64,000 nt of DNA from NCBI GenBank assembly GCA_015698285.1, contig CP048685.1:124001-188000 (forward strand), given 5' to 3'. The notes under the pieces are model-generated. The model was given only the letters and a program-made list of their open reading frames with translations. It was not told the origin of the DNA and made no database searches. Made by a program: the position numbers and the translations under genes. Position 1 is the first letter of the stretch. Every line of letters starts with the position of its first letter. The DNA comes from Candidatus Nitronauta litoralis (GTDB lineage Bacteria > Nitrospinota > Nitrospinia > Nitrospinales > Nitrospinaceae). Positions 3,281 to 21,947 of this stretch are shown in pieces.

Positions 3281-3293
3281 AAACTGATATACT

Positions 3294-3323
3294 ACCCGGG
3301 TTGCACTTTGTTGCAGCCCGGGT
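3294..3323 (+). promoter_or_regulatory. Hairpin between tssC and hcp
   Basis: ACCCGGGTTGC pairs with GCAGCCCGGGT across an 8-base loop, giving an 11-bp GC-rich stem with one G-U pair. It sits in the 101-base gap between tssC and hcp, the widest internal gap of the T6SS operon. The bases after it are T-rich but lack a clean U tract, so a full terminator is unlikely. A partial attenuator or an RNA-stabilising 5' structure for the highly used hcp message is more plausible. Confidence 0.5.
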
Positions 3324-3381
3324 TGGTTGTCATTCTAAATATGAGGCATCCAAATGACCTTTAATATGAAAGGAGTCATAC

Positions 3382-6173: not shown

Positions 6174-7192
6174 AAGACTGGCTCTACGCAGAAGGACACG
6201 CCTTTGAGTTTTTCCAGGCGGTTCGTTTGCTGGAGTCCCTTCACCCCGAACGCATTCCTGCTGGAGAAGGCTCCGATCCCTCGAAGATCGTAGTAAAGTT
6301 CAGGGGGAAAACCGGACTCGACTTTCCACCCAACGAAGTTGAAGAGGTTATTCCGCCTGAGCAAGAGGGCGATGCCGTTGAAATGAAGGTGAACATCATG
6401 AGTCTTGCGGGAGCGCTCGGTCCCCTTCCCCACACCTACACTGAGGTGTTGCTGGAAAGACTGAAACATGATGACACGGCGCTTCGCGATTTCCTGGACA
6501 TTTTCAATCACCGGCTGATTTCACTCCTCTACCGTGTTCGCAAAACCATGCACCTGGGTTTTGACAACAAGGAACCGGGAAACAACGCCTTCCACAAATA
6601 TTTTCTTGCCTTAATGGGCCTGGGAACCGGGGGGTTGAAAAACCGGATGCAATCTCCGGACAAATCCTTGTTGTATTACACAGGGCTCTTGGCTCTCAAA
6701 CCCCGGTCTCTTGCAGGATTGGAAAATATCACTTCCCATTTTTTTAATATTCCGGTGAAAGGGAAGTCACTTACAGGAAGGTGGTATACTCTCGAAGAGG
6801 ATCAATTGACCTCCATTGGCATTTTCGGAAAGAACAGGAGCCTGGGTCAAAACATCGTTCTCGGTAGTAAGGTCTGGGACCAGGAACGCTCATTCCGACT
6901 GGTTGTCGGTCCGTTGACTTTTCGCCAGTTTGAAGACTTCCTTCCTATCAATCCCGGATTCCAGCACCTATGCGAAATAACCCGCTTCTACACTGGCGAT
7001 GAATTCGATTTTGACGTTCAATTAAAACTGAAATCGGCCGAAGTTCCTGCATCGCGTTTGAGCCACAGACAAGGTCCCCGTCTCGGCTGGACCTCCTGGC
7101 TCCGGACCCGCTTTTTCCGCAACGATGACGACCAGGTGGTCCTGTCCCCTAACAGAATCCCTTCAAAGGCCCAACCGAACCATGAAAACTGA
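6137..7192 (+). CDS. tssG: T6SS baseplate protein TssG (ImpH/VasB)
   Basis: TssG is the TssF partner in the T6SS baseplate wedge. The 351-residue protein shows the ImpH pattern: an N-terminal EDWLYAEGHAFEFFQAVRLL helix, VKFRGKTGLDFPPNEV, LAGALGPLPHTYTEVLLER and the DFLDIFNHRLISLLYR block, all typical of VasB. ATG 6137 lies inside tssF, giving a 37-base overlap. The C-terminus is basic and includes LGWTSWLRTR. The last bases overlap clpV by 11. Confidence 0.95.
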   Translation: MATYGWRKDRSLEDWLYAEGHAFEFFQAVRLLESLHPERIPAGEGSDPSKIVVKFRGKTGLDFPPNEVEEVIPPEQEGDAVEMKVNIMSLAGALGPLPHTYTEVLLERLKHDDTALRDFLDIFNHRLISLLYRVRKTMHLGFDNKEPGNNAFHKYFLALMGLGTGGLKNRMQSPDKSLLYYTGLLALKPRSLAGLENITSHFFNIPVKGKSLTGRWYTLEEDQLTSIGIFGKNRSLGQNIVLGSKVWDQERSFRLVVGPLTFRQFEDFLPINPGFQHLCEITRFYTGDEFDFDVQLKLKSAEVPASRLSHRQGPRLGWTSWLRTRFFRNDDDQVVLSPNRIPSKAQPNHEN

Positions 7193-9833
7193 CCTCAAGG
7201 AACTGATCGGCAAACTCAACGGCACCTGCCGGACCTGTCTTGAAACCGCAGCTGCGCTATGCGTTTCCCAAACCAATTATAACGTTGAGATGGAGCATTT
7301 CCTGGTCAGACTCCTCGAAACTCCGGACTCGGACCTCAATCGCATCCTGAAATATTATGACCTCGATGCTAGTGAAATAAACCGTGAACTCATGGCAGCT
7401 ATCGACCAGTTTGATCGCGGTAACAATCGCACCCCTGCTTTCTCTCTTCATCTTATGCAAATGTTTGAAGAAGGCTGGATCATGTCTTCCCTGGTATTCG
7501 GGGAACCCCAAATAAGATCCGGAGCTATCCTGCTCGGGTTGCTTAGTCACGAGGCCCTTCGTGGAGTACTCGTTGAATCATCGAAAACATTACTTGAGAT
7601 ACCTCGACATAAATTACGGCAGGATGTAAAAGAACTTTGCAAAGGAACTGTAGAAGATTCAGGACCAAAGGCGGCTACGCCAAGAGGAGACGCGGGAACA
7701 AAAGGTAATGGTTCAAACCCAACGACCCAGAGCAAAGCGGCCTCGGATCCAAAATCCAAAAATCCCGCTCTTGACCAATTCACAATCAATCTGACCGAGC
7801 GCGCACGGGAAGGCCAGATCGACCCCATCCAGGGGCGCGATTTTGAAATCCGGCAAGTCATCGACATCCTCACACGTCGTCGCCAGAATAACCCGATCCT
7901 CACCGGAGAGGCGGGCGTAGGGAAAACCGCCGTAGCCGAGGGTTTTGCCCTGCGTATCGCGGTGGGCGATGTCCCCCCATCTTTAAAACAAGTTGCTCTC
8001 CACAGTCTCGATCTCGGGTTGTTACAAGCGGGAGCAGGTGTTAAGGGAGAATTCGAGAATCGTCTCAAATCGGTTATCAACGAAGTCAAGGCGTCACCCA
8101 CCCCGATCATCCTGTTTATCGATGAGGCCCACACCCTTATTGGCGCAGGAGCTGGGGGGCAACAAGGGCAAAGTGACGCCGCAAACCTGCTTAAACCTGC
8201 CTTAGCTCGAGGTGAATTGCGGACTATTGCCGCCACCACGTGGTCAGAATACAAAAAATATTTCGAAAAAGACCCGGCACTCACCCGAAGATTTCAAGTA
8301 GTCAAGGTGGATGAGCCGTCACCTGATGTGGCCATCGATATGGTTCGCGGGATCGTCGAACATCTTGAGAAGCACCATGAGGTCGTTATCCTCGACGAAG
8401 CGGTTTCTGATGCCGTGATTTTATCTGACCGCTACATTACAGGCCGGCAACTTCCCGACAAGGCCATAAGTGTTCTGGATACTGCCTGTGCACGGGTTGG
8501 GTTGGGACAAAATGCTACACCTCCTAAAGTGGAAGATGCCCAACGACGCATCGAATTGTTACGCCTGGAAATTGAAATTCTAAAGCGTGAGGAAACAGCA
8601 GGACGTTCACACAAGGATCGTCTGGAAAACCTGCAGGAGCAGTTGAAATCCACACAATCAAACCTGGAACAGTTGGAGAAACGCTGGTACCAGGAGCAGG
8701 ACATGGTAAAAGAAATTCACGAGCTTCGCGAAGAAGAAAATGACTCCGCCCAAAAAATAATAGCACTTGAGAATAAACTGGAGGCCTTCCAGGGTGAAGA
8801 ACCCATGGTTCCTGTATTTGTGGATTCAAGGGTGGTTGCCTCTGTGATTTCAGGATGGACGGGAATACCTGTTGGTAAAATGCTCACAAACGAAATCCAG
8901 AATGTTTTGGATCTGAAAAACAATCTCCAGGAGCGTGTCATTGGACAAGACTCTGGTCTTGAAGCCATCTGCAGGCGCATTCGCACCTCTCGAGCAGATC
9001 TGGATGATCCGGAGAAGCCGGTCGGAGTTTTCCTTCTCGCAGGGCCAAGCGGTGTTGGAAAAACAGAAACGGCACTGGCCCTGGCCGATTTGCTTTTCGG
9101 TGGCGAACGGAATCTGGTCAAAATCAATATGTCCGAATACCAGGAATCGTACACCGTTTCCAATCTCAAGGGATCACCACCAGGTTACGTTGGTTTCGGT
9201 CAGGGTGGAGTGCTCACCGAAGCTGTACGTCGCGCACCCTATAGTGTGGTGCTGCTTGATGAGATTGAAAAAGCGCACAATGATGTGGTCGAGCTTTTTT
9301 ACCAGGTGTTCGATAAAGGAGAAATGGAAGACAGCGAAGGAGTGCAGGTTGATTTCAAAAACACCGTGATCCTGTTGACCTCGAATGCTGGAAGCGATGT
9401 GATTATGAGTCTTTGCCAGAACGGTGGCCCGTCACCTTCAGCCGGTGACCTTGAAAAAGCCCTCAGACCCGAACTGCTCAAAACCTTCAAACCTGCTTTT
9501 CTTGGACGTACGGTGATTGTTCCCTACTTTCCTCTCGGTGACGGAGAAATACGCGACATCACTCGCCTAAAGCTCGCCAAAATCCAGGGTCGTTTTGAGG
9601 ACAACCACCGTGCAAAACTAAATTTTGACGATTCTGTTATCGAGGCTGTAGTGGAACGATGCACTGAAGTCGAATCCGGCGCCCGCAATGTAGATCATAT
9701 TCTGACCCACACACTATTGCCCGATCTAGGGAAAACGATGTTGGAAAAAATGGCGGAAGGCACCAGTGTCGAGACAGTGCAGGTAACTTTGAACCCGGAT
9801 GGCAACTTTGCCTACGAGATAAGGAACACGTAA
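7182..9833 (+). CDS. clpV: T6SS sheath-recycling AAA+ ATPase ClpV (TssH)
   Basis: ClpV is the Hsp100-type unfoldase that disassembles contracted TssBC sheath. The protein has 883 residues from ATG 7182. An N-terminal Clp-N domain (about 1-150) precedes a Lys/Ser/Thr linker. AAA+ domain 1 has Walker A GEAGVGKT near residue 241 and FIDEAHTL as Walker B. A coiled middle domain spans about 445-540. AAA+ domain 2 has Walker A GPSGVGKT near residue 620 and VVLLDEIEKAH. Family length is normal. The frame extends 57 bases upstream to another ATG, but 7182 aligns with the conserved ClpV opening and overlaps the tssG stop by 11 bases. It abuts vgrG directly. Confidence 0.95.
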   Translation: MKTDLKELIGKLNGTCRTCLETAAALCVSQTNYNVEMEHFLVRLLETPDSDLNRILKYYDLDASEINRELMAAIDQFDRGNNRTPAFSLHLMQMFEEGWIMSSLVFGEPQIRSGAILLGLLSHEALRGVLVESSKTLLEIPRHKLRQDVKELCKGTVEDSGPKAATPRGDAGTKGNGSNPTTQSKAASDPKSKNPALDQFTINLTERAREGQIDPIQGRDFEIRQVIDILTRRRQNNPILTGEAGVGKTAVAEGFALRIAVGDVPPSLKQVALHSLDLGLLQAGAGVKGEFENRLKSVINEVKASPTPIILFIDEAHTLIGAGAGGQQGQSDAANLLKPALARGELRTIAATTWSEYKKYFEKDPALTRRFQVVKVDEPSPDVAIDMVRGIVEHLEKHHEVVILDEAVSDAVILSDRYITGRQLPDKAISVLDTACARVGLGQNATPPKVEDAQRRIELLRLEIEILKREETAGRSHKDRLENLQEQLKSTQSNLEQLEKRWYQEQDMVKEIHELREEENDSAQKIIALENKLEAFQGEEPMVPVFVDSRVVASVISGWTGIPVGKMLTNEIQNVLDLKNNLQERVIGQDSGLEAICRRIRTSRADLDDPEKPVGVFLLAGPSGVGKTETALALADLLFGGERNLVKINMSEYQESYTVSNLKGSPPGYVGFGQGGVLTEAVRRAPYSVVLLDEIEKAHNDVVELFYQVFDKGEMEDSEGVQVDFKNTVILLTSNAGSDVIMSLCQNGGPSPSAGDLEKALRPELLKTFKPAFLGRTVIVPYFPLGDGEIRDITRLKLAKIQGRFEDNHRAKLNFDDSVIEAVVERCTEVESGARNVDHILTHTLLPDLGKTMLEKMAEGTSVETVQVTLNPDGNFAYEIRNT

Positions 9834-11912
9834 ATGGCAAAATACGATGACGAAAACCTGAGCCTTAAACTCACCACTCCACTGGGGGCAGACAAGCTCC
9901 TGCTGAAAACATTCCATGGAGAGGGAAAAATTTCAGAACCCTATTTTTTCTACCTGGAAATGGTTTCGCAGGAATACGAACTGGATTTTGACAAGATAGT
10001 GGGCGAAGACATCACCATCACCATGGACTTGAGCACGGGTGAAAAAAAATATTTTCACGGCATCTGCACGCGCTTTATTCAGGGTGCGTACGATGGAACC
10101 GAGTGTAAGTACTTTGCAGAAATTCGTCCATGGCTCTGGCAATTACACCTGACACGTGACAGCCGGATATTCCAGGAAATGAAAATTCCAGACATTATCA
10201 CCAAAGTATTCGACGACCTGGGCTTCACTGATTACAAGGACAGCCTGACCGGTACTTACGAGGAAGTTGAATACTGCGTTCAATACCAGGAAACAGCGTA
10301 TAACTTTGTGCAACGCCTGATGGAAGACAATGGCATCTGTTATTACTTCGATCACGCCGAGGATAAACATACCCTGATTCTGTCTGATGATTCCACCGCC
10401 CACCCGGAATGCCCTGGAGTACCAACCGTCAGTATGAGCCCTCCGGATAGTTCCATGATCGAGGATGATACAGTCAGCCAGATCTCTTTGGAAAAATCCG
10501 TCGCGACAGGAAAATATGCGATGGACGACTTTGACTTTGAAACCCCTGCGACCGACCTGCTGGTATCCGATGTTGATGCATTAAAAGAGCATAAAACAAC
10601 AGACCTTAGAGTTTATGAATATCCGGGCGGTTTTACAAAATCGGCCAAGGGAGACAGTAAAGCAAAAATCAGGATGGAGTCATTGGAATACCCAGTGCGA
10701 CTTGTTAATGGACAGAGTAATTGCAGGGACTTTCGTTCGGGTTACAAATTCACCCTGGAAGAGCACGAGCGGGAAGACATCAACGACACCTATATGATCT
10801 ATAGTGTGAACTTCACAGCAACCCAGGACTCCTACCACAACTCCTTTGTCGCCTTCCCGGCAGACACACCATTTCGTCCTGCAACAGAAACACCAAAACC
10901 GCGAATTGTTGGGACTCAAACCGCATTGGTGGTCGGAAAAGCTGGAGAAGAAATCTACACAGACAAGTACGGTCGGGTTAAAGTCCAGTTTCATTGGGAT
11001 CAGGAAGGCACCTACAATGAAGACAGTTCCTGTTGGATACGGGTCACACAGGGATGGGCTGGAAAAAGCTGGGGAAATATTTTTATTCCCCGTATCGACA
11101 TGGAAGTGGTGGTGAGCTTCCTGAATGGTGATCCGGACCGGCCACTGATAACAGGCTGTGTTTACAATGCCGACCAGACGGTACCCTACGAATTGCCTGC
11201 CAATCAAACACAAAGCACAATCAAATCGGATTCTTCCAAAGATGCTGAAGGTTTCAATGAACTCCGGTTTGAAGACAAAGCAGACGAAGAGGAAATATTT
11301 GTTCACGCCCAAAAAGATATGAACATCGAAGTCCTGAATGATGAAACCCGCACCATCACAAAAAACCGCACCACTACAATTGAAGAAGAAAACGACACTC
11401 TCACCGTCTCGAAGGGAGACCGGACATTTGAAGTCACCGAGGGCAATGAAACCACCACCATTGGAGGGGACCGCGAAATCACGGTGTCTGGAGATGAAAC
11501 GCGAACTAACGAAGGTGATTACACAGTCAAGGTGGATGGTGATTACAAAATCACAGTAGAAGGCGACCTCACCATTGAGGTGACGGGCAAGATATCTATT
11601 TCCACTGATGACAATTATGAACTCGCTGTCAGTGGTGACTACAGTAATGAGGTTGATGGCGATGTTTCCACGACAGCAGGTGGAGACCTGTCAGAAGAAT
11701 CCGATGGTGACATTACAGTCACCGCAAGTGGAGATTTGAAAAACGAATCCGATGGTGACCTTACCAACTCGGCAGGTGGCGACGTAACAGTCGAATCGGA
11801 TGGCGATGTTTCTGTAACCGCTACCAATGAAGCAACGGTCAGTGGTATGAATGTCACAGCATCAGCAGATGTTGAAGCTGCCGTTTCCGGAAGTACCGTC
11901 TCACTGGGGTAA
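9834..11912 (+). CDS. vgrG: T6SS spike protein VgrG (TssI) with extended Gly-Asp repeat needle
   Basis: VgrG forms the trimeric spike on the Hcp tube. In this 692-residue protein the gp27-like part spans about 1-380, including VQYQETAYNFVQRLMEDNGI and YYFDH. The gp5 OB-fold follows, with YTDKYGRVKVQFHWD, SSCWIRVTQGWAGKSWG and PRIDMEVVVSFLNGDPDRP. From about residue 510 to 680 the chain is a run of roughly 8-residue units carrying Gly-Asp, as expected for a triple beta-helix needle. No catalytic effector domain is fused beyond it; the end is a short Ser/Ala/Val tail. Translation starts on the base after the clpV stop, so expression is tightly linked. Only four bases separate it from the next gene, which makes that gene a candidate VgrG-associated factor. 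Confidence 0.95.
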   Translation: MAKYDDENLSLKLTTPLGADKLLLKTFHGEGKISEPYFFYLEMVSQEYELDFDKIVGEDITITMDLSTGEKKYFHGICTRFIQGAYDGTECKYFAEIRPWLWQLHLTRDSRIFQEMKIPDIITKVFDDLGFTDYKDSLTGTYEEVEYCVQYQETAYNFVQRLMEDNGICYYFDHAEDKHTLILSDDSTAHPECPGVPTVSMSPPDSSMIEDDTVSQISLEKSVATGKYAMDDFDFETPATDLLVSDVDALKEHKTTDLRVYEYPGGFTKSAKGDSKAKIRMESLEYPVRLVNGQSNCRDFRSGYKFTLEEHEREDINDTYMIYSVNFTATQDSYHNSFVAFPADTPFRPATETPKPRIVGTQTALVVGKAGEEIYTDKYGRVKVQFHWDQEGTYNEDSSCWIRVTQGWAGKSWGNIFIPRIDMEVVVSFLNGDPDRPLITGCVYNADQTVPYELPANQTQSTIKSDSSKDAEGFNELRFEDKADEEEIFVHAQKDMNIEVLNDETRTITKNRTTTIEEENDTLTVSKGDRTFEVTEGNETTTIGGDREITVSGDETRTNEGDYTVKVDGDYKITVEGDLTIEVTGKISISTDDNYELAVSGDYSNEVDGDVSTTAGGDLSEESDGDITVTASGDLKNESDGDLTNSAGGDVTVESDGDVSVTATNEATVSGMNVTASADVEAAVSGSTVSLG

Positions 11913-11916
11913 TCGT

Positions 11917-12696
11917 ATGGCCCTGTCACAGGAAAAATCTACCGAAGGTCTGGACAAAACGCCACCAAAAGCATCTAAGGCTTCTGAAGGCAATGGGAAA
12001 CCCTCAACTCCCGCTGATAAAAAAGTTGAAGGCAAAGACGGAACGCTCCTTAAACGCTTTCCACTAAAAGAAAACAAAAAACATGGAGAAGCAAAAATCT
12101 ATGACAAGGAAGGGAAGCTCATCCGTAAAGAGCATTATGTAAATGGAGTTTTGGAGGGACCTGTCACACAATTCGATTTTAATGGCACAATCAGCAAACA
12201 GCTCACAATAAAGAATGGAAAGCTTGAAGGGGCTTTACTTAGATACAACAAGGGAGTTTTATCCAGCAGCACTCAATACCGTGCAGGAAAGCGACATGGT
12301 GAGCAACTCATTTATAGTGAGCAGGAAAAACTTCTCGTAAAAAGAAACTATGTTCAGGACAGGCTTCAGGGAGAGGTCATTGGCTATGATGGACAAGACA
12401 ATGAAATCTCAAAAGTAACCTATGTAAATGATTTGCGGCATGGTCCCAGCATTGGAAACTACCCTGGAGGTGGCATTCGAGAAAAAGCACATTTTCAGAA
12501 CGACCGGTTGGAAGGCGAACGCATTCGCTATCATGTAAACGGCAAACCCAGAGAGATTCAAAGTTTCAAAGAGGGAAAATCACTGGGCCCTCCTACATTT
12601 TATAAAGACAGCGGCGAACCTGAAGAGCCCCCCGGGACTCCTCCGAAAGAAAAAGGATGGCTGGAAAAAATCCTGGATTTCATTTTCGGAAACTAA
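11917..12696 (+). CDS. YwqK/MORN-like repeat protein downstream of vgrG
   Basis: This 259-residue protein has a Lys/Ser/Pro-rich N-terminus (about 1-45) and then a chain of YwqK/MORN-like units. Examples are KHGEAKIYDKEGKLIRKEHY, VNGVLEGPV, KNGKLEGALLRYN, AGKRHGEQLIYSEQ and ERIRYHVNGKPREIQSF, each about 22-24 residues. Such repeats form elongated beta-sheet surfaces; some are annotated as antitoxin components, others bind partners. There is no signal peptide. The C-terminus (GWLEKILDFIFGN) is hydrophobic. The start chosen is ATG 11917, four bases after vgrG, so the two are surely cotranscribed. By context it could be a VgrG adaptor, an effector or an immunity protein; the sequence does not decide. 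Confidence 0.75.
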   Translation: MALSQEKSTEGLDKTPPKASKASEGNGKPSTPADKKVEGKDGTLLKRFPLKENKKHGEAKIYDKEGKLIRKEHYVNGVLEGPVTQFDFNGTISKQLTIKNGKLEGALLRYNKGVLSSSTQYRAGKRHGEQLIYSEQEKLLVKRNYVQDRLQGEVIGYDGQDNEISKVTYVNDLRHGPSIGNYPGGGIREKAHFQNDRLEGERIRYHVNGKPREIQSFKEGKSLGPPTFYKDSGEPEEPPGTPPKEKGWLEKILDFIFGN

Positions 12697-12698
12697 CC

Positions 12699-12773
12699 AT
12701 GCGCATCGTTTTCACCTTTCCCTTCCTGATTTTAAATCTCCCTTTTGATCCCGGAAACAACTTCAATTTATGA
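12699..12773 (+). CDS. Possible 24-codon leader ORF upstream of SPOR gene
   Basis: A short frame from ATG 12699 encodes a hydrophobic 24-residue peptide (MRIVFTFPFLILNLPF and onward). It ends at the TGA that overlaps the ATG of the next gene as TTATGA. The overlap would allow translational coupling of the SPOR protein gene to the upstream message. There is no clear ribosome site and no family match, so it may be chance. Confidence 0.25.
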   Translation: MRIVFTFPFLILNLPFDPGNNFNL

Positions 12774-13690
12774 AACTCATTATTCGCCTTGTTGTTTTGA
12801 TTGTAGTTGCCCTTTTTCTATTCACGGGTGGGTTCTGGCTGGGCAATCAATGGAGGGGGAATTCGGTGGGAATCCCGGATGGCGATTTATTAGCCAAACT
12901 CCCCGGCAAAGACCAGGGCGCACCTAAACCAGAAGATTCCAATATCACAACACCCAATGAACAAAATACATTGGAAAGCTCTGAAAACAGAAAAAAAAAT
13001 TCCAACGAAAAATTGCTTTCTCCGAAAGAACCCAACAAGCCAAAAGAGTCAGCCGGGTTATCCCCTGAACCTCCTCCTCAAGCAAACGATGCAAATGCTG
13101 CAACCACAAAAACCAAAACCATTCCACCTGAGAAAACTATTCAACCCGCCCTCCAGAGTGAGACGGCTGCAGGTCCTGAGAAAAAAATTGACCCCGCTCC
13201 TGCTGAAGTTCAGCCTTCTCCTGAAAAGACAACGCCTCCACTTGCCTCAGCAAATGCAACCTCTCAGCCTAAACAAAAAGAAAATAAGGAATCACTTTCT
13301 CTGATTGTCACTCCCGAGGATCTGGGTAAAAGCCAAATCACTTACTCCGTACAAGTGGGGACCTATCTGGACAAAGATCTGGCTCGCATTCGTCTGGATC
13401 AACTTAAGGCCAAACAATACCCCGCATTTTTGGTCAGTGCCTGGGACCACCAAAAGCAACTTTGGTACACGGTGCGAGTGGGCCGATACACAGACATTAT
13501 GAAAGCTCAAATGGCTGCGAAAGAAATCACAATGAAGGAACGTATTCCCGCTACCGTTTATGGCCTGGGTTCGTTAAGATATGAGGATGCTCAGGAATCG
13601 ACCAAGACTTCACCTGAAAATATGGCACCTGCCGAAAAAAAATCTGCCACTCAAACCAGTCCACCTGCAAAGGAGGATTCAAGCTTATGA
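12770..13690 (+). CDS. SPOR-domain membrane protein
   Basis: The protein has 306 residues. One N-terminal membrane helix (about residues 2-25, LIIRLVVLIVVALFLFTGGF) precedes a long Pro/Lys/Glu/Thr-rich linker (about 45-175). A SPOR domain lies around 187-265, with YSVQVGTYLDKDLARIRLDQ and WYTVRVGRYTD. A polar tail follows. SPOR domains bind denuded glycan strands of peptidoglycan, usually at the septum, so this is a single-pass inner-membrane protein reaching into the periplasm. It lies in the same transcription direction as the T6SS operon and overlaps the next gene by four bases (ATGA). A role in anchoring or local remodelling of the wall for the secretion machine is possible but only inferred; a general cell-division role is equally possible. 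Confidence 0.8.
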   Translation: MKLIIRLVVLIVVALFLFTGGFWLGNQWRGNSVGIPDGDLLAKLPGKDQGAPKPEDSNITTPNEQNTLESSENRKKNSNEKLLSPKEPNKPKESAGLSPEPPPQANDANAATTKTKTIPPEKTIQPALQSETAAGPEKKIDPAPAEVQPSPEKTTPPLASANATSQPKQKENKESLSLIVTPEDLGKSQITYSVQVGTYLDKDLARIRLDQLKAKQYPAFLVSAWDHQKQLWYTVRVGRYTDIMKAQMAAKEITMKERIPATVYGLGSLRYEDAQESTKTSPENMAPAEKKSATQTSPPAKEDSSL

Positions 13691-14106
13691 ACCCGCAAGA
13701 GAACCTTGAAGTGTGGATAAGCACCGTTGGCTTGTTGCGCGCGAAGCTCAGTCAAACGATGAAAGGAATCAATGATCTCAGGCAGGAGTGTCGGAAACGG
13801 CAGTGCTTTGCCCCGAATGAGCTGAGTCCCTTGATGGCGGAGGCGCAGGAACTGTTCGTAGAAATGCTGAAAGCCGGTGAATTTCTGGGGACAACGCAGG
13901 AAAACCTGAATCGCAACCCGTCCGAGACCTTTGAAGATTATCTTGAAGACTGGGCGCTGACTCAAACCGAGGACCGGTTTAAAAGAGTAAAGGACTTTCT
14001 GATTGTATTATCAGAAACTCAAATCAGTGGACTGGAACTTGAAAAAGAAATCTGGGAAGAAGGAATTAAACTGATAGAAGAAGCGCTTATCAGGAAACCA
14101 GCTTAA
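13687..14106 (+). CDS. Unrecognised 139-residue helical protein, last gene of the T6SS-linked run
   Basis: This gene is not recognised. The protein is soluble and mostly helical by its pattern of Leu, Glu, Lys and Gln. It begins MNPQENLEVWISTVGLLRAK and contains LMAEAQELFVEMLKAGEF. It has no signal peptide, membrane segment or metal motif. It overlaps the SPOR gene by ATGA, so it is translationally coupled to it. It ends 12 bases before a convergent gene, which marks the end of the + strand transcription unit. It resembles a small accessory or chaperone-like protein only in general character. Confidence 0.6.
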   Translation: MNPQENLEVWISTVGLLRAKLSQTMKGINDLRQECRKRQCFAPNELSPLMAEAQELFVEMLKAGEFLGTTQENLNRNPSETFEDYLEDWALTQTEDRFKRVKDFLIVLSETQISGLELEKEIWEEGIKLIEEALIRKPA

Positions 14107-14117
14107 ATGTTCACCTG

Positions 14118-14888
14118 TCAGTTATAAATCACAAAACTTATTGCTCCACCCAGTTCACCCAGTTTTCCTCCTTCTTTTCTGGCTCCCGTAATATCCCGTT
14201 CATTTCGATTACCTCCATGACAGGGCAGGCATGTTTTATTGTAATACTCAGGAATGATTAATCTGAAGGCTGATCGACCGCGATGACGCGTCTCCTCAAC
14301 AAAGGGTTTTTCCTCGCTTGATCTTGTTTTTCCAAACTTGTTATCAATAATACTTGCCTCCCAGCGATCCGGCTGGTTTGAGCGGTTACGGATATATTTA
14401 TTTGGCGCAGTAAGCTTGATGAACGCTTTTTGCTTCATCAACCGATTAAACCGATCCGCCACTAGCCGGGCAAATACTGCCGGCAGGAACCCCTTATAGC
14501 CACGCCCTCTCTCGTTAATCAAAGGTTGCGCATTACTCATCACCTCATCAATCGCATTGAGCATGGCTTTTTGCCCAACCCCTTTTAGAGATGCTCCATC
14601 TGCCAACCGAAATTCCTTACCCGTATCTCTTTCGTAATGTTGTTTTGCCTCTTCAATCACTTTTTCCGGAGGCAGGTTTTTATCACCAATATCGGAATCA
14701 TTTATCTCTTGCTGGTATTCAGAGATGACAGCCCGGGCGGACCTAAACAACTGGGTAATTTCGAGCGCTATTTCCTTTTTTTCATTTAAGGACAAAGCCC
14801 ACGATTCTAATATCAACCCGGGACCTCCGAAAAAAAAGGCAGCCATTCCAGCGGTCAACAAAGTACTTCTCATTTTTCGACACAACAT
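14118..14888 (-). CDS. DUF3365 (Tll0287-like) c-type haem protein, secreted
   Basis: The protein has 256 residues. An N-terminal signal (LLTAGMAAFFFGGPGLILES) ends near Ala-Leu-Ser at about residue 33. The rest fits a DUF3365/Tll0287-like haem sensor domain: a helical region, the LVADRFNRLMKQKAFIKL block, NKYIRNRSNQPDRWEASII, and a C-terminal haem attachment motif CLPCHGG (CXXCH). It is therefore a periplasmic mono-haem protein, possibly a redox or ligand sensor. GGAGG precedes ATG 14888 at good spacing, so I keep this start rather than the later Met. It sits alone, convergent with the T6SS-linked genes. Confidence 0.75.
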   Translation of the reverse strand: MLCRKMRSTLLTAGMAAFFFGGPGLILESWALSLNEKKEIALEITQLFRSARAVISEYQQEINDSDIGDKNLPPEKVIEEAKQHYERDTGKEFRLADGASLKGVGQKAMLNAIDEVMSNAQPLINERGRGYKGFLPAVFARLVADRFNRLMKQKAFIKLTAPNKYIRNRSNQPDRWEASIIDNKFGKTRSSEEKPFVEETRHRGRSAFRLIIPEYYNKTCLPCHGGNRNERDITGARKEGGKLGELGGAISFVIYN

Positions 14889-15143
14889 ACGCGCCTCCTA
14901 TTGCAAATAGAAAACAGCGGCGGCTCCGTTTCATAAACTTATCAGTAAAACCAGTAGCTAAAAATAGAGCTTTTTGAAAATAGACAATCGAACAGGAGCC
15001 TGACTGAATTTAAAATTTCTAAAGGCCCGTAAGATCCTTTAGAAAAGCAGTCCTTCATTTAAAAAGTCTGTCTAATTAACGATTACAGTATAATTTATTT
15101 TGCTGAAAAACACGAAACACAATTCTTAAGCTTTCTTACAGTA

Positions 15144-16625
15144 TCAGGAGGAGGGCCTGGCCCTTTGCCGAGCCCATTCCCGGAGTTCTGCAATACGCTC
15201 CTGAGCTGTTACAGCAAGAGGAACTGTCTCCTTAATAGCCTGCAAAATATCCTCCGTCGCGAATTCCCTGTTTTCTGCAAAACCTGCATACATTGCAGAA
15301 ACAACAGCTTCCTGAATTTCAGCCCCACTAAACTGATCCGCAGTTTCAGCGAGTGACCTCAAGTTATAATTGTCAGGATTCCTTTTTTTTAATTTGATGT
15401 GAATTTTGAATATTTCCTCACGCTCTTCGTGTTTCGGTAAATCGACAAAAAAGATTTCATCGAAACGTCCCTTGCGCAATAATTCCGGTGGGAGCGCTTC
15501 TATATTATTGGCCGTTGCGATCACAAAAACCGGACGTGTTTTTTCCTGCATCCAGGTCAGGAAAGTTCCAAAAACACGAGCCGTCACCCCCGAATCCCCT
15601 TGCCCCGAACTTGAGGTTCCTGCAAACCCCTTCTCGATCTCATCTAACCATAGACAGGTCGGACTCATCGCTTCTGCCTGGGCCAGGGCCTGACGCATAT
15701 TATCCTCGGAGTTCCCTATATAGGAATCAAAAATTTTACCTACGTCCATCCTGAGCAACGGCAGGTTCCATTCCGTTGCGATGGCTTTCGCAGCCAGGCT
15801 TTTTCCACACCCCTGAACTCCAACCATCATCACACCCTTTGGCTCCGGCAAACCATATTGACGCGCCTTGTTGCTGAAGGCGCGGGAACGCTGTCTCAGC
15901 CATTCTTTCAACTTGCCTAGCCCCCCCACAACACCCATCTGAGTGGAGAGCCCAATAAAATCGAGGATGCCCGATTTTCTAATCAATTGTTTTTTCTCTT
16001 CTATGATGAGCGGCAGATCATCTTCAGTGAAGTTGCGGTTGTGTATGAGAGCTTTCGAATAAACATTCTCCGCTTCATTACGGGTCAGGCCGGTCGTTGC
16101 CTGGACTACTTTCTCCAATAGTTCGGAAGATAAGTCCACTTGCACTTTGTCTGATTTTCTGTAAGGCTCCAGCAAGTTACGCAACAAGGCGGCCAGTTCT
16201 CTTGTGTCAGGAAGAGGAAGATCAAATACCGTAATATCCTTCTCGAGCTCCGGGGGGATCTTCAGCACCGGTGAAATCAATATCACCGTTTTGTAACTGC
16301 GCTTGAGTTGATGAACCAGATCACGCAATCGTCGAACCACTTCGGGCTCTTCAAGAAATGAATGAAAATCCCGTAAAACATAAATGGCTTTTTTGCCCGA
16401 TTTGGCGATTGACTTTAAAGCCTCTTCCGGTTTCCGCTCATTGGCTTCCGACTGAGGGGCCGGTTGAAAACCTGTGGTCCGCGTCCAAAGCACAAGCTCC
16501 TTTCCAGTAGCCTGGCCAATTTCTTCAAGAAGAGTTTGCGCCCGTTCCTCTTCCCAGCTTAATAGATAAAGAAGTGGATAACGCGCCCGGATCGAAAGGT
16601 TGAGTTCGTGCTTTAGTTTGTCCAT
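15144..16625 (-). CDS. Ycf46-type AAA+ ATPase
   Basis: This 493-residue AAA+ protein resembles the Ycf46 family known from cyanobacteria and plastids. The N-terminal half (about 1-230) looks like a degenerate AAA module without a Walker A, with YVLRDFHSFLEEPEVVRRLRD and VILISPVL. The C-terminal half is an active classic AAA domain. It has Walker A GVQGCGKS near residue 270, Walker B CLWLDEIEK near 323, sensor 1 VIATANN, and the arginine-finger motif LRKGRFDEIFFVDLP near 386. No protease domain or membrane helix is present, which argues against FtsH. It starts 17 bases after the stop of the beta-propeller gene, so the two form an operon. In Synechocystis a Ycf46 protein affects inorganic-carbon responses; the role here is unknown. 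Confidence 0.85.
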   Translation of the reverse strand: MDKLKHELNLSIRARYPLLYLLSWEEERAQTLLEEIGQATGKELVLWTRTTGFQPAPQSEANERKPEEALKSIAKSGKKAIYVLRDFHSFLEEPEVVRRLRDLVHQLKRSYKTVILISPVLKIPPELEKDITVFDLPLPDTRELAALLRNLLEPYRKSDKVQVDLSSELLEKVVQATTGLTRNEAENVYSKALIHNRNFTEDDLPLIIEEKKQLIRKSGILDFIGLSTQMGVVGGLGKLKEWLRQRSRAFSNKARQYGLPEPKGVMMVGVQGCGKSLAAKAIATEWNLPLLRMDVGKIFDSYIGNSEDNMRQALAQAEAMSPTCLWLDEIEKGFAGTSSSGQGDSGVTARVFGTFLTWMQEKTRPVFVIATANNIEALPPELLRKGRFDEIFFVDLPKHEEREEIFKIHIKLKKRNPDNYNLRSLAETADQFSGAEIQEAVVSAMYAGFAENREFATEDILQAIKETVPLAVTAQERIAELREWARQRARPSS

Positions 16626-16642
16626 TACAACACCACCCGGAT

Positions 16643-18595
16643 TTAAAATTCCAAATATGAATTACGATCCACTTTGTTTTCCGCAATATCCAACAACCGC
16701 AGCACATGAAGGGTTTTTTCTGAAAGAACCGCTACCCGGTTGCCTTTGTGACCCACTGCCATTGACTGAATCCCACCCGGTAATTTCTGCTGCCAGATCC
16801 GCTCATTTTTCAATAAACGGTAACAACCGATAGACTGCCCTTCCGGGGACAACTCCAGTATCTCATCATGCTGGGAAGTCACGATTGAGCGATTGGAACG
16901 TAATTGGCTTTCTCCCAGTAAAACTCCATCGTCCTGAAAAATGACAACTCTCCCCTTTTCTGAAATAAAAGCAACCCCCCGCTCAAGGGGAACGATTCGT
17001 TTTACCGGTTGCTTTAAGTCATGCGTCCATCGAATGCTTCCGTTAAAATCGATACCATAGCAAACCCCTTCATCATCTCCGGCAAAAACAGAACTCAAGC
17101 TGACTCTCAGCCGCGACACCGGGGCGTTGAGAACAATTCTTCCAGCTTTCAAACTTTTTAAATGTAGCGTATACAGGGTTTTGCCCACTCCCTGAAATAC
17201 GGCCAGGTTTTTACCTGTATTGAGGCGAAGTTTGCTGACCTTCCGGTCCAGATTACGCCTCCAGATTCTTCGACCACCCCTATTGTACAGTGAAATCCCT
17301 CCCATTTTGTGAAACACCATGAACCTGCCACTGGCATGGTCAAGACCAAGGTCGGATATGCCCTCCTTATAAAAAGTAAGATGGTTTTCAAAATCTGATA
17401 ATGGGTGGGCACAATAAACCTCCTCCGGATTGGACAGCAGGATGGTTTCACCATCACCGGATATCCAGCCGTTATCTTTCCGAACCATAAAAGTTTTGTT
17501 CCAAATCTGGTTTCCCTGCGCGTTATAAACATAAAAATCTTTTTGAATGCCAAATAAAAAATAACGTCCATCATCGGAAACTTTAAGCACACCAGTCCAG
17601 TTTCCTTCAAAGTGAGGCACCTTTTTTTCCCAGATCTGCCGCGGCTTTACAACATCCTGTTTTTTTCTTAACTCTAGAAACTCATAACGTTCCCGCTTAC
17701 TGTCAGAAAATTCAAAACAGGTCATGCTCCCACTTTCCTCTAAAACCAATGCGCGGTCACCGTTTCGATCCAGTTTACAAAAGTAAACTTTTGAAGGAAG
17801 TTGTTTTTGCCAGACGATGGTAGCATTGCGGTCTACCAGATAAATTTTTCCAAGAGCATCTGACAGTAACATCCAGCGCCCGTTTCCACTTACAGAAACC
17901 TTCGATGCCATCGCATCAAGGTCTATATGCTGCAGCGTCCGTTTCTTGAGGTCATAAACATATACTCCTTTTTCGAAGCAAGAAACTGCGACCATTTCAC
18001 CACGGTCACTGGCTGCAATCTCTGATGGATTTTCTCGTGAAAGATCAATGGAAACAGGATGGTTAGCGCTCCAGATTTCCGCGCCATTTCCTTTATACAC
18101 CCCGAGGGTGACCTGATTATGAACAACGAAAAACATATCCTCATTCGTTATCGCACGCACCACTCTCCAGGGTTTGGGAACGTTCAGGGTGCGGATTTCC
18201 TGTCCCTGGAAATTTAACTTGCGAGGAGGGGAACGCCAGCCCCAGACCACAATGCCACTGGACTTCACTTCGAAAGAAGTCCAGTAATGCTTGAAATTCT
18301 GCTGATGGAGTTTGTTTCCCTTGAGATCCAGAAATACCAGCCGACTGTGTTCATCCAGTGTGATGATTCTTTTTTTGTAGTCAGCTACCCGAACGTGATG
18401 GATTGGGATGTCAATTGAAGTACGGCAAGCTTCATGTCCCTGATCGTCAATCAACTGGACAGCGCCATCGTCAAACCCAAGCGTTGTCCAGTGATGCACG
18501 GGAGAAAAATCAATACAGGTCAGAGGTCCATCCACCCAGCGGGTCCAAAGCTGAATACCAATTCGCGGTTCTTCAAATTGAAGGGAGCTACCCAA
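16643..18595 (-). CDS. Large beta-propeller (WD40/PQQ-like) repeat protein
   Basis: The protein has 650 residues and no signal peptide, so it is cytoplasmic. It is built throughout from repeats of about 40 residues with hydrophobic strand pairs ending in patterns such as VYVYDLKK, IYLVDRN, FYVYNAQGNQIWNK and ISLYNRGGRRIW, typical of WD40/PQQ-like blades. The count suggests two propellers. The start codon is TTG 18595, supported by AGGAGA nine bases upstream. It is the first gene of a two-gene unit with the Ycf46-like ATPase. Propellers usually act as interaction platforms, so it is a likely partner or scaffold for the ATPase. No enzymatic residues stand out. Confidence 0.75.
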   Translation of the reverse strand: MGSSLQFEEPRIGIQLWTRWVDGPLTCIDFSPVHHWTTLGFDDGAVQLIDDQGHEACRTSIDIPIHHVRVADYKKRIITLDEHSRLVFLDLKGNKLHQQNFKHYWTSFEVKSSGIVVWGWRSPPRKLNFQGQEIRTLNVPKPWRVVRAITNEDMFFVVHNQVTLGVYKGNGAEIWSANHPVSIDLSRENPSEIAASDRGEMVAVSCFEKGVYVYDLKKRTLQHIDLDAMASKVSVSGNGRWMLLSDALGKIYLVDRNATIVWQKQLPSKVYFCKLDRNGDRALVLEESGSMTCFEFSDSKRERYEFLELRKKQDVVKPRQIWEKKVPHFEGNWTGVLKVSDDGRYFLFGIQKDFYVYNAQGNQIWNKTFMVRKDNGWISGDGETILLSNPEEVYCAHPLSDFENHLTFYKEGISDLGLDHASGRFMVFHKMGGISLYNRGGRRIWRRNLDRKVSKLRLNTGKNLAVFQGVGKTLYTLHLKSLKAGRIVLNAPVSRLRVSLSSVFAGDDEGVCYGIDFNGSIRWTHDLKQPVKRIVPLERGVAFISEKGRVVIFQDDGVLLGESQLRSNRSIVTSQHDEILELSPEGQSIGCYRLLKNERIWQQKLPGGIQSMAVGHKGNRVAVLSEKTLHVLRLLDIAENKVDRNSYLEF

Positions 18596-18655
18596 GATTT
18601 TCTCCTAATTAAAGAAGGGCAAAATGATATCAAATTTATTCGGGATACTACAGAG

Positions 18656-20503
18656 TCAGCGTACTCCACTGGGCAAACGACCCGCGGCCATTGCAGGATG
18701 AGATGCTGAGTCGGTCAGATCACCTATGAATTCTAAAGCAAATCCGGTGTTGCCGCTTTCAAAAACCACTGCTCCCCAATAAGCCAGCATTGTAACATCG
18801 GGGAACCCGTCTCCAGGCACTACCGTATTGGGACTGGTTGCGATCGGATCAATACGAAGTCCCCCCGTACCAGTGGCAGTGTGCCCTGTAATGATTTGTG
18901 CATTTGGAAGATTGGCGCTGGTAAGGCTTGGGTGGTTGGAGGGAACAATGAATAGCCGCGAAGTGGTCCCCGCATTTACAGTAAACTCGGCTACAGGTCC
19001 AAAGATGCCTCCATCAGTAAGGAAGGCTTTTACCGAGACCCCGATCTCCGATGCCATTCCAGAAAGCGAGGGATGCGTCAGCCCTATAAAAGTATAGTTG
19101 CCGGAACCCGCTTGCCAATATGGCGTCATAACACTGGCAGCATTAGTAAAATCACCGGCAATGGGAAGAGCGTGTTCGCGAAATGCCGCGACTGTTGCAG
19201 CAGTCTGGTTCAGAGTCTTCCTGTTATCTGCTGCATTGGGGCCTCCTTCTACAATCCCCGTCGGGTTTCCGCCAAAATTCACATCCGGGTTGGACCAATA
19301 ATTAATTCGCGGGCAAGAGGAACAGCTTCCCGCCGTTGTCGCCATGATCGTCCTGAAATTATTAGTAGAATCTGCATAACCATGGTTAAAATCAAATGGG
19401 CCGTTACTCGAGTCCGCTTCCCGATGATGACGCGCTCCCATATTGTGACCAATCTCATGGCCAAACGTAAAATTGCCTGTGGCACAACTCCGTTTGGTTA
19501 CAGATACCGCGCTCGACGCAAAAGAACTGGTAACTGTGCTCATAAAAAATGCGATGCCGCACAAGTTACTATTGCCTTCTACCAGCATTACGACAAGATC
19601 CGCTCCATATTGTTCTCGCAGTGGCAATGCGTTGGGAACATTACCCGCCCTTAAATCATTTAATGCCCCGCTAAAAGAAAATCCGGATTCACTGTAAGGC
19701 ACTTCTTCCGTATGAACCACCCGTATCCTGTGATTGACCCCACTATTCGAAAAAGCTGTATTTGTTTCAGTTTCAGCAAGATCAATTAAAGTCTGCATGG
19801 TGGCAGCCGATCCCGCTCCCTGCCGAGCAGCGGAAGTGTAGACAACCAGCACATCCAGAAGCGATCCATCATCAGCCAGGTTATCCTGCATAGACTCAGG
19901 TCCCTGCACTGAAGGAACCTCAATGGGATCAGCACCCGGTGGAAATGCAGATGGGTCCAGATCGAAAATACCATGGACTCCCCCCTCCCCCGGACGAACC
20001 TGACAGAGAAACCCATCAGTCACGACGGTCCCCATAACCTGGTCATTATTCACAGCTAACATCACCGTACTGTGAGCCTGCCCTTTCAGCTTCCCTATCA
20101 ACGAATAACCACCGGAAACATGCGACTCCACCCTTTCAATATGGGCCGTGTAGCTTTCATTGGGAAATAAATTGAGGGTGAGATCTATTCCGGGAGAAAC
20201 AGGCAAACCATTTGGTAGCTTGAGTTGTGACAAGTCAACCTGTACCGCTCTTGAACGAATAACCGTTCCAGAAGAATCTGGGAAAACCGGCGTTCCGGAT
20301 GGTGGATCAGAGAATAATGGAGTGGCCTGGGAGTTTGAAAATCCACACAATAAAAAAATGAAAAAAACCATGACTATCAATATTGCATCAAAACCCATAT
20401 CAGGCATCAAAGCACTATCATGACACCGTTGTCGTCTTTGCCACTCTTCAGATTGGCAATACAACCCAGTAATTTTATTTACCGACTTTCTATTTTTAGG
20501 CAT
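18656..20503 (-). CDS. Secreted metzincin (reprolysin-like) metalloprotease
   Basis: The protein has 615 residues. Near residues 347-358 it has the zinc site HEIGHNMGARHH, the metzincin HExxHxxGxxH pattern. It is preceded by a domain with VLVVYTSAARQGAG and YGADLVVMLVEG and followed by the expected Met-turn region (IMATTAGS). The N-terminal part has a hydrophobic stretch (AILIVMVFFIFLLCGF) ending at SQA, a secretion signal. The annotated ATG leaves 36 residues before it, and ATG 20407 or 20398 would put it at the N-terminus, which looks more natural. The C-terminal 130 residues form an unrecognised domain (VSVKAFLTDGGIFGPVAEF). Function: extracellular or periplasmic proteolysis, target unknown. 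A small + strand gene diverges from it. Confidence 0.85.
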   Translation of the reverse strand: MPKNRKSVNKITGLYCQSEEWQRRQRCHDSALMPDMGFDAILIVMVFFIFLLCGFSNSQATPLFSDPPSGTPVFPDSSGTVIRSRAVQVDLSQLKLPNGLPVSPGIDLTLNLFPNESYTAHIERVESHVSGGYSLIGKLKGQAHSTVMLAVNNDQVMGTVVTDGFLCQVRPGEGGVHGIFDLDPSAFPPGADPIEVPSVQGPESMQDNLADDGSLLDVLVVYTSAARQGAGSAATMQTLIDLAETETNTAFSNSGVNHRIRVVHTEEVPYSESGFSFSGALNDLRAGNVPNALPLREQYGADLVVMLVEGNSNLCGIAFFMSTVTSSFASSAVSVTKRSCATGNFTFGHEIGHNMGARHHREADSSNGPFDFNHGYADSTNNFRTIMATTAGSCSSCPRINYWSNPDVNFGGNPTGIVEGGPNAADNRKTLNQTAATVAAFREHALPIAGDFTNAASVMTPYWQAGSGNYTFIGLTHPSLSGMASEIGVSVKAFLTDGGIFGPVAEFTVNAGTTSRLFIVPSNHPSLTSANLPNAQIITGHTATGTGGLRIDPIATSPNTVVPGDGFPDVTMLAYWGAVVFESGNTGFALEFIGDLTDSASHPAMAAGRLPSGVR

Positions 20504-20616
20504 ATGATGGTCGGGAACCTTTCAAATTGGAGAGTCTTCTCCAAGTTAAAAGCAGCGTATAAGCATGTCAAGCAACAGTTCATCATTAAACCAGGTGTAC
20601 CTCATAAGGAGTTTTC

Positions 20617-20847
20617 ATGTCCGACCCCCGTCATATCATTAAATTCACGGCTGCAACCGGATTTACCGTTGTTCTTGAGTATGGATCTGCTGAAGAAGCA
20701 GAGACTATTGAAAAAAAAATCAAGGAAGCCGGATTAAAAACCGAAAGACTGGAGACCTATCATTTCAATTTCAGTGAATCCGATCTATTCATGGATATGA
20801 GAAGTCCAGAATGCGTAGAACAATTTGATCTGGATGATTGGATATAG
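20617..20847 (+). CDS. Unrecognised 76-residue protein
   Basis: This is a small soluble acidic protein beginning MSDPRHIIKFTAATGFTVVL, with an apparent beta-alpha-beta pattern: two strands, a Glu/Lys-rich helix (SAEEAETIEKKIKEAG), a strand. The C-terminus is acidic (EQFDLDDWI). A good ribosome site (AAGGAG) precedes ATG 20617, which supports translation. It diverges from the metalloprotease gene and runs convergent with the CbiX-like gene. No family was recognised and no metal or catalytic motif is seen. Confidence 0.6.
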   Translation: MSDPRHIIKFTAATGFTVVLEYGSAEEAETIEKKIKEAGLKTERLETYHFNFSESDLFMDMRSPECVEQFDLDDWI

Positions 20848-20870
20848 ATCAATAAATTCTCTTCTCTATT

Positions 20871-21392
20871 TTATTCTGAGAAAAACTCTATCTGAGAAAC
20901 TTGATATTTTATCAGTTCTGCCACCTTTGAAAGATCAAAGGGCCAGGCATAACGAATCTGGGCATCGGGAAAACGTTTCTGCAATTTAGCCACCTCTTCC
21001 GGGATTTCGCCATCAGCATGAGACCCGCCCGGAGTCACCATGGTGGTCACTAAAGCGATCTGACTGAATCCTTCATTGGCAAGATCCGTCACCGCCATTT
21101 CAATGGATGGCGAGCAAAACTCATTGTAGGCCACTACCAACCGTTCATCTTCCAATAAGGATTCTAATTGGACCGCCAACGATTCAAGTCCCATACGGTA
21201 GGGATCATTTTCCGGAGTCCTTGGCCAATTACGAATTTTTTGGTCTGCCTCAATTTCCATTTGAGAGGGTTCACCGCCTTTTGCCCGACGCTCGCTTTCC
21301 ATCCGTTTCAATTCAGTTACCCAGCCTCTTGGAAGGTCTTTCGGCACCCCACCATGACCAATAAGAACAACAGCTCGTTTAGTTGATTTCAT
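20871..21392 (-). CDS. CbiX/SirB-like chelatase family protein
   Basis: The protein has 173 residues with two halves typical of single-domain CbiX-type chelatases. The N-terminal LIGHGGVPKD carries the first metal-binding His. The C-terminal half has TMVTPGGSHADGEIPEEV, where His and Glu residues form the second part of the site. The family inserts cobalt or iron into sirohydrochlorin for cobalamin or sirohaem. An insert of about 40 charged residues (KRMESERRAKGG to NWPRTPENDPYRMG) is also found in unassigned CbiX-like proteins, so the substrate is uncertain. No other tetrapyrrole gene is adjacent, though hemB lies about 15 kb away. It is probably a single-gene unit. Confidence 0.75.
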   Translation of the reverse strand: MKSTKRAVVLIGHGGVPKDLPRGWVTELKRMESERRAKGGEPSQMEIEADQKIRNWPRTPENDPYRMGLESLAVQLESLLEDERLVVAYNEFCSPSIEMAVTDLANEGFSQIALVTTMVTPGGSHADGEIPEEVAKLQKRFPDAQIRYAWPFDLSKVAELIKYQVSQIEFFSE

Positions 21393-21557
21393 TTTTTTCT
21401 CTTTGCTTTCTATCTTTGAGAGCCGTACAAGGTTTTACAACTTTCTACATTGAAAGCCGGTTTTCCAATGGTCGGAGTTTCTCACCCCTGAAAATTTTAC
21501 AGCGTGTTACAATAGATGTGAACGTTGCAGAACAAAACATTTATTGGGAGAAAAATC

Positions 21558-21947
21558 ATGGGCTATCTGGTTTGCGACGGAGCAACAATTTCCTGTGCTG
21601 GTTCTGTCGGGCAGAGTTCGTGCAGCCTGACTGTTTTGAACGCCATGATCACCTCAGACGACAACGCTCAGGCGACCATTATGGATTACGTTCCTTATAT
21701 GAACGTTGCCTCATTTGGTCAATGCAACCTGAGCTCCAACCCCATGGTGGCCGCGGCTACGGCCGCAGCATTGGGCGTTCATACACCTGTCACCTGTGTC
21801 CCCATGACCGTTTCACCATGGATCGTTGGAAGCCCGACCATTACGGTCAACAACCTTCCTGCCCTGACAGACGACTCCACCCTGATGTGCACCTGGGGCG
21901 GCAGCATCAGTGTAGACGATGCCGGTCAATCCGTTGTTGAGTACTAA
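21558..21947 (+). CDS. PAAR-like DUF4280 protein (candidate T6SS spike tip)
   Basis: The protein has 129 residues from ATG 21558, preceded by GGGAG. It matches the DUF4280/PAAR-like layout: YLVCDGATISCAGS at the start, then VLNAMITSDDN, IMDYVPYMNVASFGQCNLSS, the Ala-rich VAAATAAALGVHTPVTC, VSPWIVGSPTITVNNLPAL, and LMCTWGGSISV near the end. Four or more Cys and a Gly-rich end are conserved. Such proteins cap VgrG-type spikes of contractile injection systems. It lies about 9.6 kb from vgrG, as a lone gene between two opposite-strand genes. By family it could complete the needle built by the operon at the window start. Confidence 0.85.
   Translation: MGYLVCDGATISCAGSVGQSSCSLTVLNAMITSDDNAQATIMDYVPYMNVASFGQCNLSSNPMVAAATAAALGVHTPVTCVPMTVSPWIVGSPTITVNNLPALTDDSTLMCTWGGSISVDDAGQSVVEY

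What the first reader, a model, noticed from the sequence alone, without database searches (positions are those of the whole stretch)
15144..18595. Operon of a Ycf46-type AAA+ ATPase and a double beta-propeller protein
A cytoplasmic propeller protein of 650 residues (TTG start with good ribosome site) is followed after 17 bases by a Ycf46-like ATPase with a degenerate plus an active AAA half. Pairing of a propeller scaffold with a AAA+ motor hints at a remodelling complex. I know no described system with exactly this pair, so it is the best candidate here for an undescribed machine.
Basis: partly seen in the sequence, partly recalled or inferred. Interest (0 to 1): 0.6.

Follow-up and report, generated by a model that had tools for sequence, protein, structure and literature searches.

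The report
AAA+ motor with tailed propeller partner
A protein-remodelling motor of the Ycf46 family, known mainly from cyanobacteria and algal chloroplasts and of unknown mechanism, is paired in several bacterial phyla with a propeller-shaped protein that always carries the same short tail, which points to an undescribed two-part machine.

Summary
A 650-residue cytoplasmic double beta-propeller gene is followed after 17 bases by a Ycf46-type AAA+ ATPase. The pair is adjacent, same order and strand, in 13 of the 13 Nitrospinota genomes that hold the close propeller (77 searched), in 7 of 8 genomes of a second phylum where the upstream gene is visible (the eighth has one gene between), and in 4 Planctomycetota genomes. 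Other neighbours change, and T6SS, which flanks it here, is dispensable.

New here: 27 of 27 propellers carry [FYW][LI]E, followed in 26 by a hydrophobic residue, at or within three residues of the C-terminus. In 17 of 19 double propellers a second copy (degenerate in 3) sits in the inter-propeller linker. Both copies fall in segments AlphaFold2 leaves disordered, yet they are well conserved. None of 11,246 ORFs around 74 Ycf46 genes without such a neighbour ends this way.

I read the propeller as an adaptor that docks on Ycf46 through these tails. Docking is inferred: a read-through fusion model showed no interface. Clients and pathway are unknown.

The parts
16643..18595 (-). Double beta-propeller protein, 650 aa, first gene of the pair
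   Evidence: ORF; PQQ_2; AlphaFold2; Foldseek; homologues
18602..18606 (-). AGGAG ribosome-binding site of the propeller gene
   Evidence: read
17669..17689 (-). Internal copy of the tail motif, residues 303-309 RYEFLEL, in the disordered linker between the two propellers
   Evidence: alignment; pLDDT under 50 at residues 300-316; conservation; copies
16646..16666 (-). C-terminal copy of the motif, residues 644-650 RNSYLEF-COOH
   Evidence: alignments; pLDDT under 50 at residues 640-650; specificity
15144..16625 (-). Ycf46-type AAA+ ATPase, 493 aa: degenerate N-terminal half, active C-terminal half
   Evidence: ORF; Pfam; homologues; tree
15798..15821 (-). Walker A GVQGCGKS, ATPase residues 269-276
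15714..15722 (-). Pore-loop-like YIG, ATPase residues 302-304
   Evidence: position; role recalled from other AAA+ unfoldases
15633..15650 (-). Walker B WLDEIE, ATPase residues 326-331
15459..15482 (-). LLRKGRFD, arginine-finger region, ATPase residues 382-389
   Evidence: role recalled

Best explanation
The two genes encode a dedicated AAA+ motor and its adaptor. Shown: a conserved two-gene module in three phyla, in which the propeller evolves fast while a short motif, [FYW]-[LI]-E-[hydrophobic], stays fixed at its C-terminus and usually also in the linker between propellers, in segments predicted to be disordered. Inferred: Ycf46 forms a ring whose active AAA half threads or remodels client proteins. 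The propeller captures the client (or a partner complex) through its variable faces, and the one or two tail motifs tether it to the ring, probably at a surface common to all Ycf46 proteins. The client and pathway are unknown.
For: Adjacency, same order and strand: 13 of 13 Nitrospinota genomes with the close propeller (77 searched; 14 of 77 have both genes, 0 the propeller alone, 1 an ATPase alone; nominal Fisher p 2e-14, not corrected for kinship). Second phylum: of 9 of 24 genomes with Ycf46, the gene upstream is visible in 8; direct in 7, one radical-SAM gene between in 1. Planctomycetota: adjacent in 4. Only these two gene families recur across the flanks of 26 loci. Motif in 27 of 27 propellers: 24 strictly terminal and complete, 2 followed by one to three residues, 1 ending FLE without the last residue; internal copy in 17 of 19 doubles, three of these degenerate (FFDL twice, FVEF once); a second tail copy in 2 of 8 singles. 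Segments with pLDDT under 50 are 1-8, 300-316 and 640-650, and the last two hold the motifs. The C-terminal five residues rank 14th of 646 five-residue stretches in conservation. Motif-ended ORFs of 150 aa or more: 44 of 1682 across the loci then held, all propellers, duplicates included. Strict motif: 0 of 11,246 stop-ended ORFs of 40 aa or more around 74 Ycf46 genes without such a neighbour. In the own genome the propeller is the only convincing long protein ending so (42 places). Active-site and pore residues of a threading AAA+ are present.
Against: The fusion model did not dock the tail: residues 297-345 pLDDT under 50, pTM 0.54 (one subunit, 3 paired rows, so weak). No ATPase residue separates 22 partnered from 19 unpartnered Ycf46s beyond three conservative changes, so no partner-specific surface was found. 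Many Ycf46s lack such a propeller. In G079 and G003 the two genes are not adjacent (G003 is a draft with the ATPase at a contig edge), and G399's propeller has no Ycf46 on its 6.5-kb contig.
Confidence: 0.5

Rival explanations
1. The propeller is the substrate, not the adaptor: its tails are handles by which Ycf46 grips and unfolds or disassembles propeller assemblies.
For: A short disordered C-terminal peptide with an adjacent motor gene also fits a recognition tag; a YIG pore loop is present. The two-copy layout fits one handle per propeller in double forms.
Against: A co-operonic scaffold kept only to be unfolded is unusual; two tail copies on a single propeller in G095 and G097 look more like avidity for docking.
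Confidence: 0.2
2. The tail binds a third protein or the propeller itself, and the operon reflects co-regulation in one pathway rather than a direct complex.
For: No interface predicted; no partner-specific ATPase residues; a radical-SAM/SPASM gene lies between the two genes in G077.
Against: No third gene family is shared by the flanks in the 26 loci compared, and adjacency persists through large changes of neighbours.
Confidence: 0.2
3. It is an accessory of the type VI secretion system encoded next to it here (TssC, ClpV, VgrG, DUF4280).
For: T6SS genes lie at about 2-12 kb in the window; G010 and G011 have TssC on the same contig as the pair.
Against: TssC was not found in 7 genomes with the adjacent pair (G012, G015, G017-G021) nor in G003, and is present in 3 genomes without the pair (G009, G041, G067).
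Confidence: 0.03
4. It is a conflict or antiphage system of the MoxR-vWA-beta-propeller or IetAS kind.
For: AAA+ plus propeller architecture; IetA hits confined to the AAA domain.
Against: No vWA gene among the 10 window ORFs scanned; IetA score 76 against a cut-off of 510; the propeller has no PADLOC hit; in phylum 2 the pair sits beside housekeeping genes tmk, holB and PSP1.
Confidence: 0.05

Closest known systems
Ycf46 (Slr0374 of Synechocystis; plastid ycf46)
   Same: Full-length homology at about 45-49% identity to the cyanobacterial proteins, with the active AAA half conserved (name recalled)
   Different: No motif-tailed propeller beside it in the cyanobacterial loci. In Synechocystis it lies in a stress operon slr0373-slr0374-slr0376 and its loss lowers EcaB carbonic anhydrase activity, as cited in PMC7496141 (passages seen)
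MoxR-vWA beta-propeller ternary systems (eLife 2020, PMC7159879; passages seen)
   Same: A AAA+ ATPase linked with a beta-propeller in a bacterial operon
   Different: There the propeller is fused to a vWA protein and the motor is MoxR; here no vWA gene was found near and the motor is a classical-AAA Ycf46
Cdc48/p97 with WD40 cofactors such as Ufd3/PLAA (cofactors recalled)
   Same: Classical AAA domain, closest solved relatives by sequence; propeller partner joined by a short motif in the proposed model
   Different: No Cdc48 N-domain match, degenerate first AAA half; the motif does not look like the SHP, VIM or HbYX motifs I recall
BamB / PQQ propellers
   Same: Blade sequence resembles PQQ_2
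   Different: Cytoplasmic, tandem, tailed; BamB model score 37 against cut-off 285

Membership tests
Ycf46-type AAA+ ATPase | End-to-end homology, including the non-canonical N-terminal half, with cyanobacterial Ycf46 | tested here: met
   Cyanobacterial hits align from residue 1-7 to 484-493 at 45-49% identity; tree
Ycf46-type AAA+ ATPase | Intact Walker A, Walker B and arginine-finger motifs in the C-terminal half | tested here: met
MoxR-vWA-beta-propeller ternary system | vWA gene (fused to the propeller) in the operon | tested here: not met
   No VWA hit among the 10 window ORFs scanned at 9834-21947, the propeller included
MoxR-vWA-beta-propeller ternary system | MoxR-clade AAA+ | tested here: not met
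   ATPase matches PF00004 and AAA_lid_3; no MoxR-type model in the Pfam or NCBIfam tables
Type VI secretion accessory | Co-occurrence with T6SS core genes | tested here: not met
IetA antiphage ATPase | NCBIfam equivalog cut-off | tested here: not met
   76.2 bits against 510
BamB | NCBIfam equivalog cut-off | tested here: not met
   37.4 bits against 285.2
Cdc48 / proteasome-activating nucleotidase | NCBIfam subfamily cut-offs | tested here: not met
   112 against 803 and 109 against 500 bits
AAA+ motor with docked adaptor | Physical complex of motor and adaptor | tested here: inconclusive
   Read-through fusion model shows no docking, pTM 0.54

The most novel reading that the evidence does not exclude
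Ycf46 is a tag-reading remodelling motor: it recognises a C-terminal [FYL]-L-[ED]-[hydrophobic] tail that several unrelated partners carry. One partner is this propeller. Another may be TelA: the four TelA proteins over the family cut-off among 39 genomes (G078, G080, G081, G097) end FLDVK, YLEID, YLEID and LLEIE, and in two of them TelA lies in the cluster beside Ycf46, while none of 7 plasmid TelAs ends in the full motif (two Vibrio ones end FHVEL). This would give the Ycf46 family, plastid copies included, a general docking code.
Probability: 0.22. Interest if true: 0.8.

Novelty: new variant of a known kind. Interest (0 to 1): 0.6.

Why it matters
Ycf46 is conserved from cyanobacteria to red-algal plastids, yet its only physiological handle in the papers seen is a carbonic-anhydrase phenotype. 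A conserved genetic partner with an almost invariant short tail gives a direct, cheap test of how this motor is recruited, and a sequence tag with which to look for its clients.

Tried and rejected
T6SS accessory: rejected by distribution. Defence system: no support. Motif-tailed propeller in other Ycf46 genomes: searched the genomes of 46 of the 80 loci; 24 had propeller-like hits, and none of the ORFs checked in 30 fetched loci ends in the motif. Generic single propellers in 9 Planctomycetota genomes match the DG_23 propeller and all 9 genomes also have Ycf46, but they lack the motif, so they were not counted. Partner-specific ATPase residues: none useful. Interface by fusion model: negative. 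A first reading that G101 lacked the propeller was wrong: an antisense ORF hid it. The VIA-align look at the fusion model tested only the propeller part, so the N-terminal half of the ATPase was not compared.

Counts left out: L035-L037 duplicate Nitrospinota genomes already counted. G020's propeller is split over two contigs: it is counted in the 13 but left out of the 27 tail sequences; its end carries the motif. G002's 31% ATPase is kept as 'ATPase alone'. G202's propeller runs off its contig and was not counted. The four adjacent Planctomycetota ATPases were not in the tree. The own-genome pattern covers F or Y, not W, at its first position.

Full report
Observation. The window lies in a 3.92-Mb single-contig genome. 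Its relatives include genomes deposited as Nitrospinae, Nitrospinaceae or Nitrospina, so I take the phylum to be Nitrospinota; the species was not identified.

Anatomy. The propeller matches PQQ_2-type blades and is predicted as two propellers. By strand count I read about seven and eight blades, with pLDDT under 50 only at residues 1-8, 300-316 and 640-650. Foldseek finds tandem WD40 propellers, and the PDB sequence search finds designed and natural propellers. The ATPase has an active classical AAA half, closest among solved proteins to VCP-like ATPase and Cdc48, and an N-terminal half without a recognisable Walker A.

Conservation of the pair. In 77 Nitrospinota genomes (own included) 14 hold both genes, none the propeller alone, one a distant ATPase alone. 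In the 13 with a close propeller the genes are adjacent in the same order; in G003 they lie on separate contigs with the ATPase at a contig edge. A second phylum-rank group of 24 genomes, two of them deposited as Nitrospirae and Nitrospinota MAGs, has Ycf46 in 9. In the 8 where the gene upstream is visible it is a single propeller in 7, and a radical-SAM/SPASM gene preceded by the propeller in 1. In 294 Planctomycetota genomes 90 have Ycf46. Four of those with the closest copies have a propeller directly upstream (G178, G222, G277, G285), and two more have a tailed propeller not seen beside Ycf46 (G079, G399). G277 was found by inspecting neighbours, not by the propeller search. Comparing all neighbours in 26 loci, only these two families recur widely (23 and 20 loci; the next reaches 7). 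On the ATPase tree the Nitrospinota, second-phylum and DG_23 copies fall on one side of a branch (SH-aLRT 88) that also holds three copies without a tailed propeller found (L039, L040, L041).

The tail. The propellers are as little as 15-19% identical between groups, yet 27 of 27 end in the motif or within three residues of it. The single forms end, after a variable linker, in FDYLEI, FKFLEV, FDYLEL, FDFLEV, FDFIEV or FEFLEI; the double forms in SYLEF, SFLEL, AWLEF, QFLEI, FYLEI, LYLEI and similar; the exceptions are RFLEFP, YLEFGNG and SRFLE. The linker between the two propellers holds a second copy in 17 of 19 double forms, three of them degenerate. Two single forms carry a second copy, FEFLET, within the tail. 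High conservation inside segments predicted disordered is the usual signature of a binding motif. Background: 44 of 1682 ORFs of 150 aa or more ended in the loose motif and all 44 were propellers, duplicates of the same genes included; 0 of 11,246 ORFs of 40 aa or more in 74 Ycf46 loci without the partner end in the strict motif; in the own genome 42 places fit the DNA pattern and the only other ORF above 60 aa was a dubious 155-aa frame.

Mechanism. The simplest reading is motor plus adaptor, the tails docking on Ycf46. What is shown is the module and the motif; docking, threading and client capture are inferred. The AlphaFold2 test on a read-through fusion of the G078 pair did not place the tail on the ATPase. 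It used one subunit and three paired rows, so it is weak evidence, but it is against the reading. A comparison of 22 partnered and 19 unpartnered ATPases found no partner-specific site, which would fit either a docking surface common to all Ycf46 or no docking at all.

A further lead. In two loci deposited as Desulfobacterales and Proteobacteria (L040, L041), whose Ycf46 has no propeller beside it, the flank holds a conserved cluster with a VWA protein, NMT1-like and OmpA-type proteins and a TelA protein ending in YLEID. The four TelA proteins over the family cut-off in 39 genomes all have a related tail; a fifth, sub-threshold hit in G003 was not counted. None of 7 plasmid TelAs (of 14 records found) ends in the full motif, though two close Vibrio copies end FHVEL. 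The sample is small.

Known work. Papers seen: PMC7496141 passages on slr0374/Ycf46, PMC7159879 passages on MoxR-vWA systems, PMC5940233 passages on plastid ycf46. Searches for Ycf46 (32 papers, listing), slr0374 (5, listing), Ycf46 with propeller (1, listing only) and Ycf46 with AAA ATPase and carbon (0) gave no description of the pair. The library lacks most subscription journals, so this is not proof of absence.

Noticed in passing
window about 1997-11912 and 21525-21947: A type VI secretion cluster (TssC/VipB, ClpV-like ATPase, VgrG) and a DUF4280 PAAR-like gene flank the pair; TssC occurs in 9 of 77 Nitrospinota genomes.
   Followed up: partly
L040:9595-16972 and L041:262-7638: Two Ycf46 genes of Desulfobacterales/Proteobacteria MAGs lie beside a conserved six-gene cluster with NMT1-like, VWA, OmpA/phosphonate-binding and TelA proteins; TelA ends in YLEID in both.
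   Followed up: partly
L170:6491-7768 (G077): A radical SAM/SPASM gene sits between the propeller and Ycf46 genes in one genome of the second phylum.
   Followed up: no
L265, L267, L268, L273, L274, L277: Distant Planctomycetota Ycf46 homologues are longer (stop-to-stop frames of 658-699 residues) and share a basic C-terminal end such as ..RLARIKLG.
   Followed up: no
window:18656-20503: The gene upstream on the same strand is a metzincin-type metalloprotease related to Mep72 (131 bits, below the family cut-off).
   Followed up: no
window:11851-12696: An ORF of 281 aa with MORN-variant repeats follows VgrG, a possible T6SS effector or accessory.
   Followed up: no
L034 (G002): A distant Ycf46-like ATPase (31% identity) lies beside a vWA-like protein, which may be a different motor-partner arrangement.
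   Followed up: no
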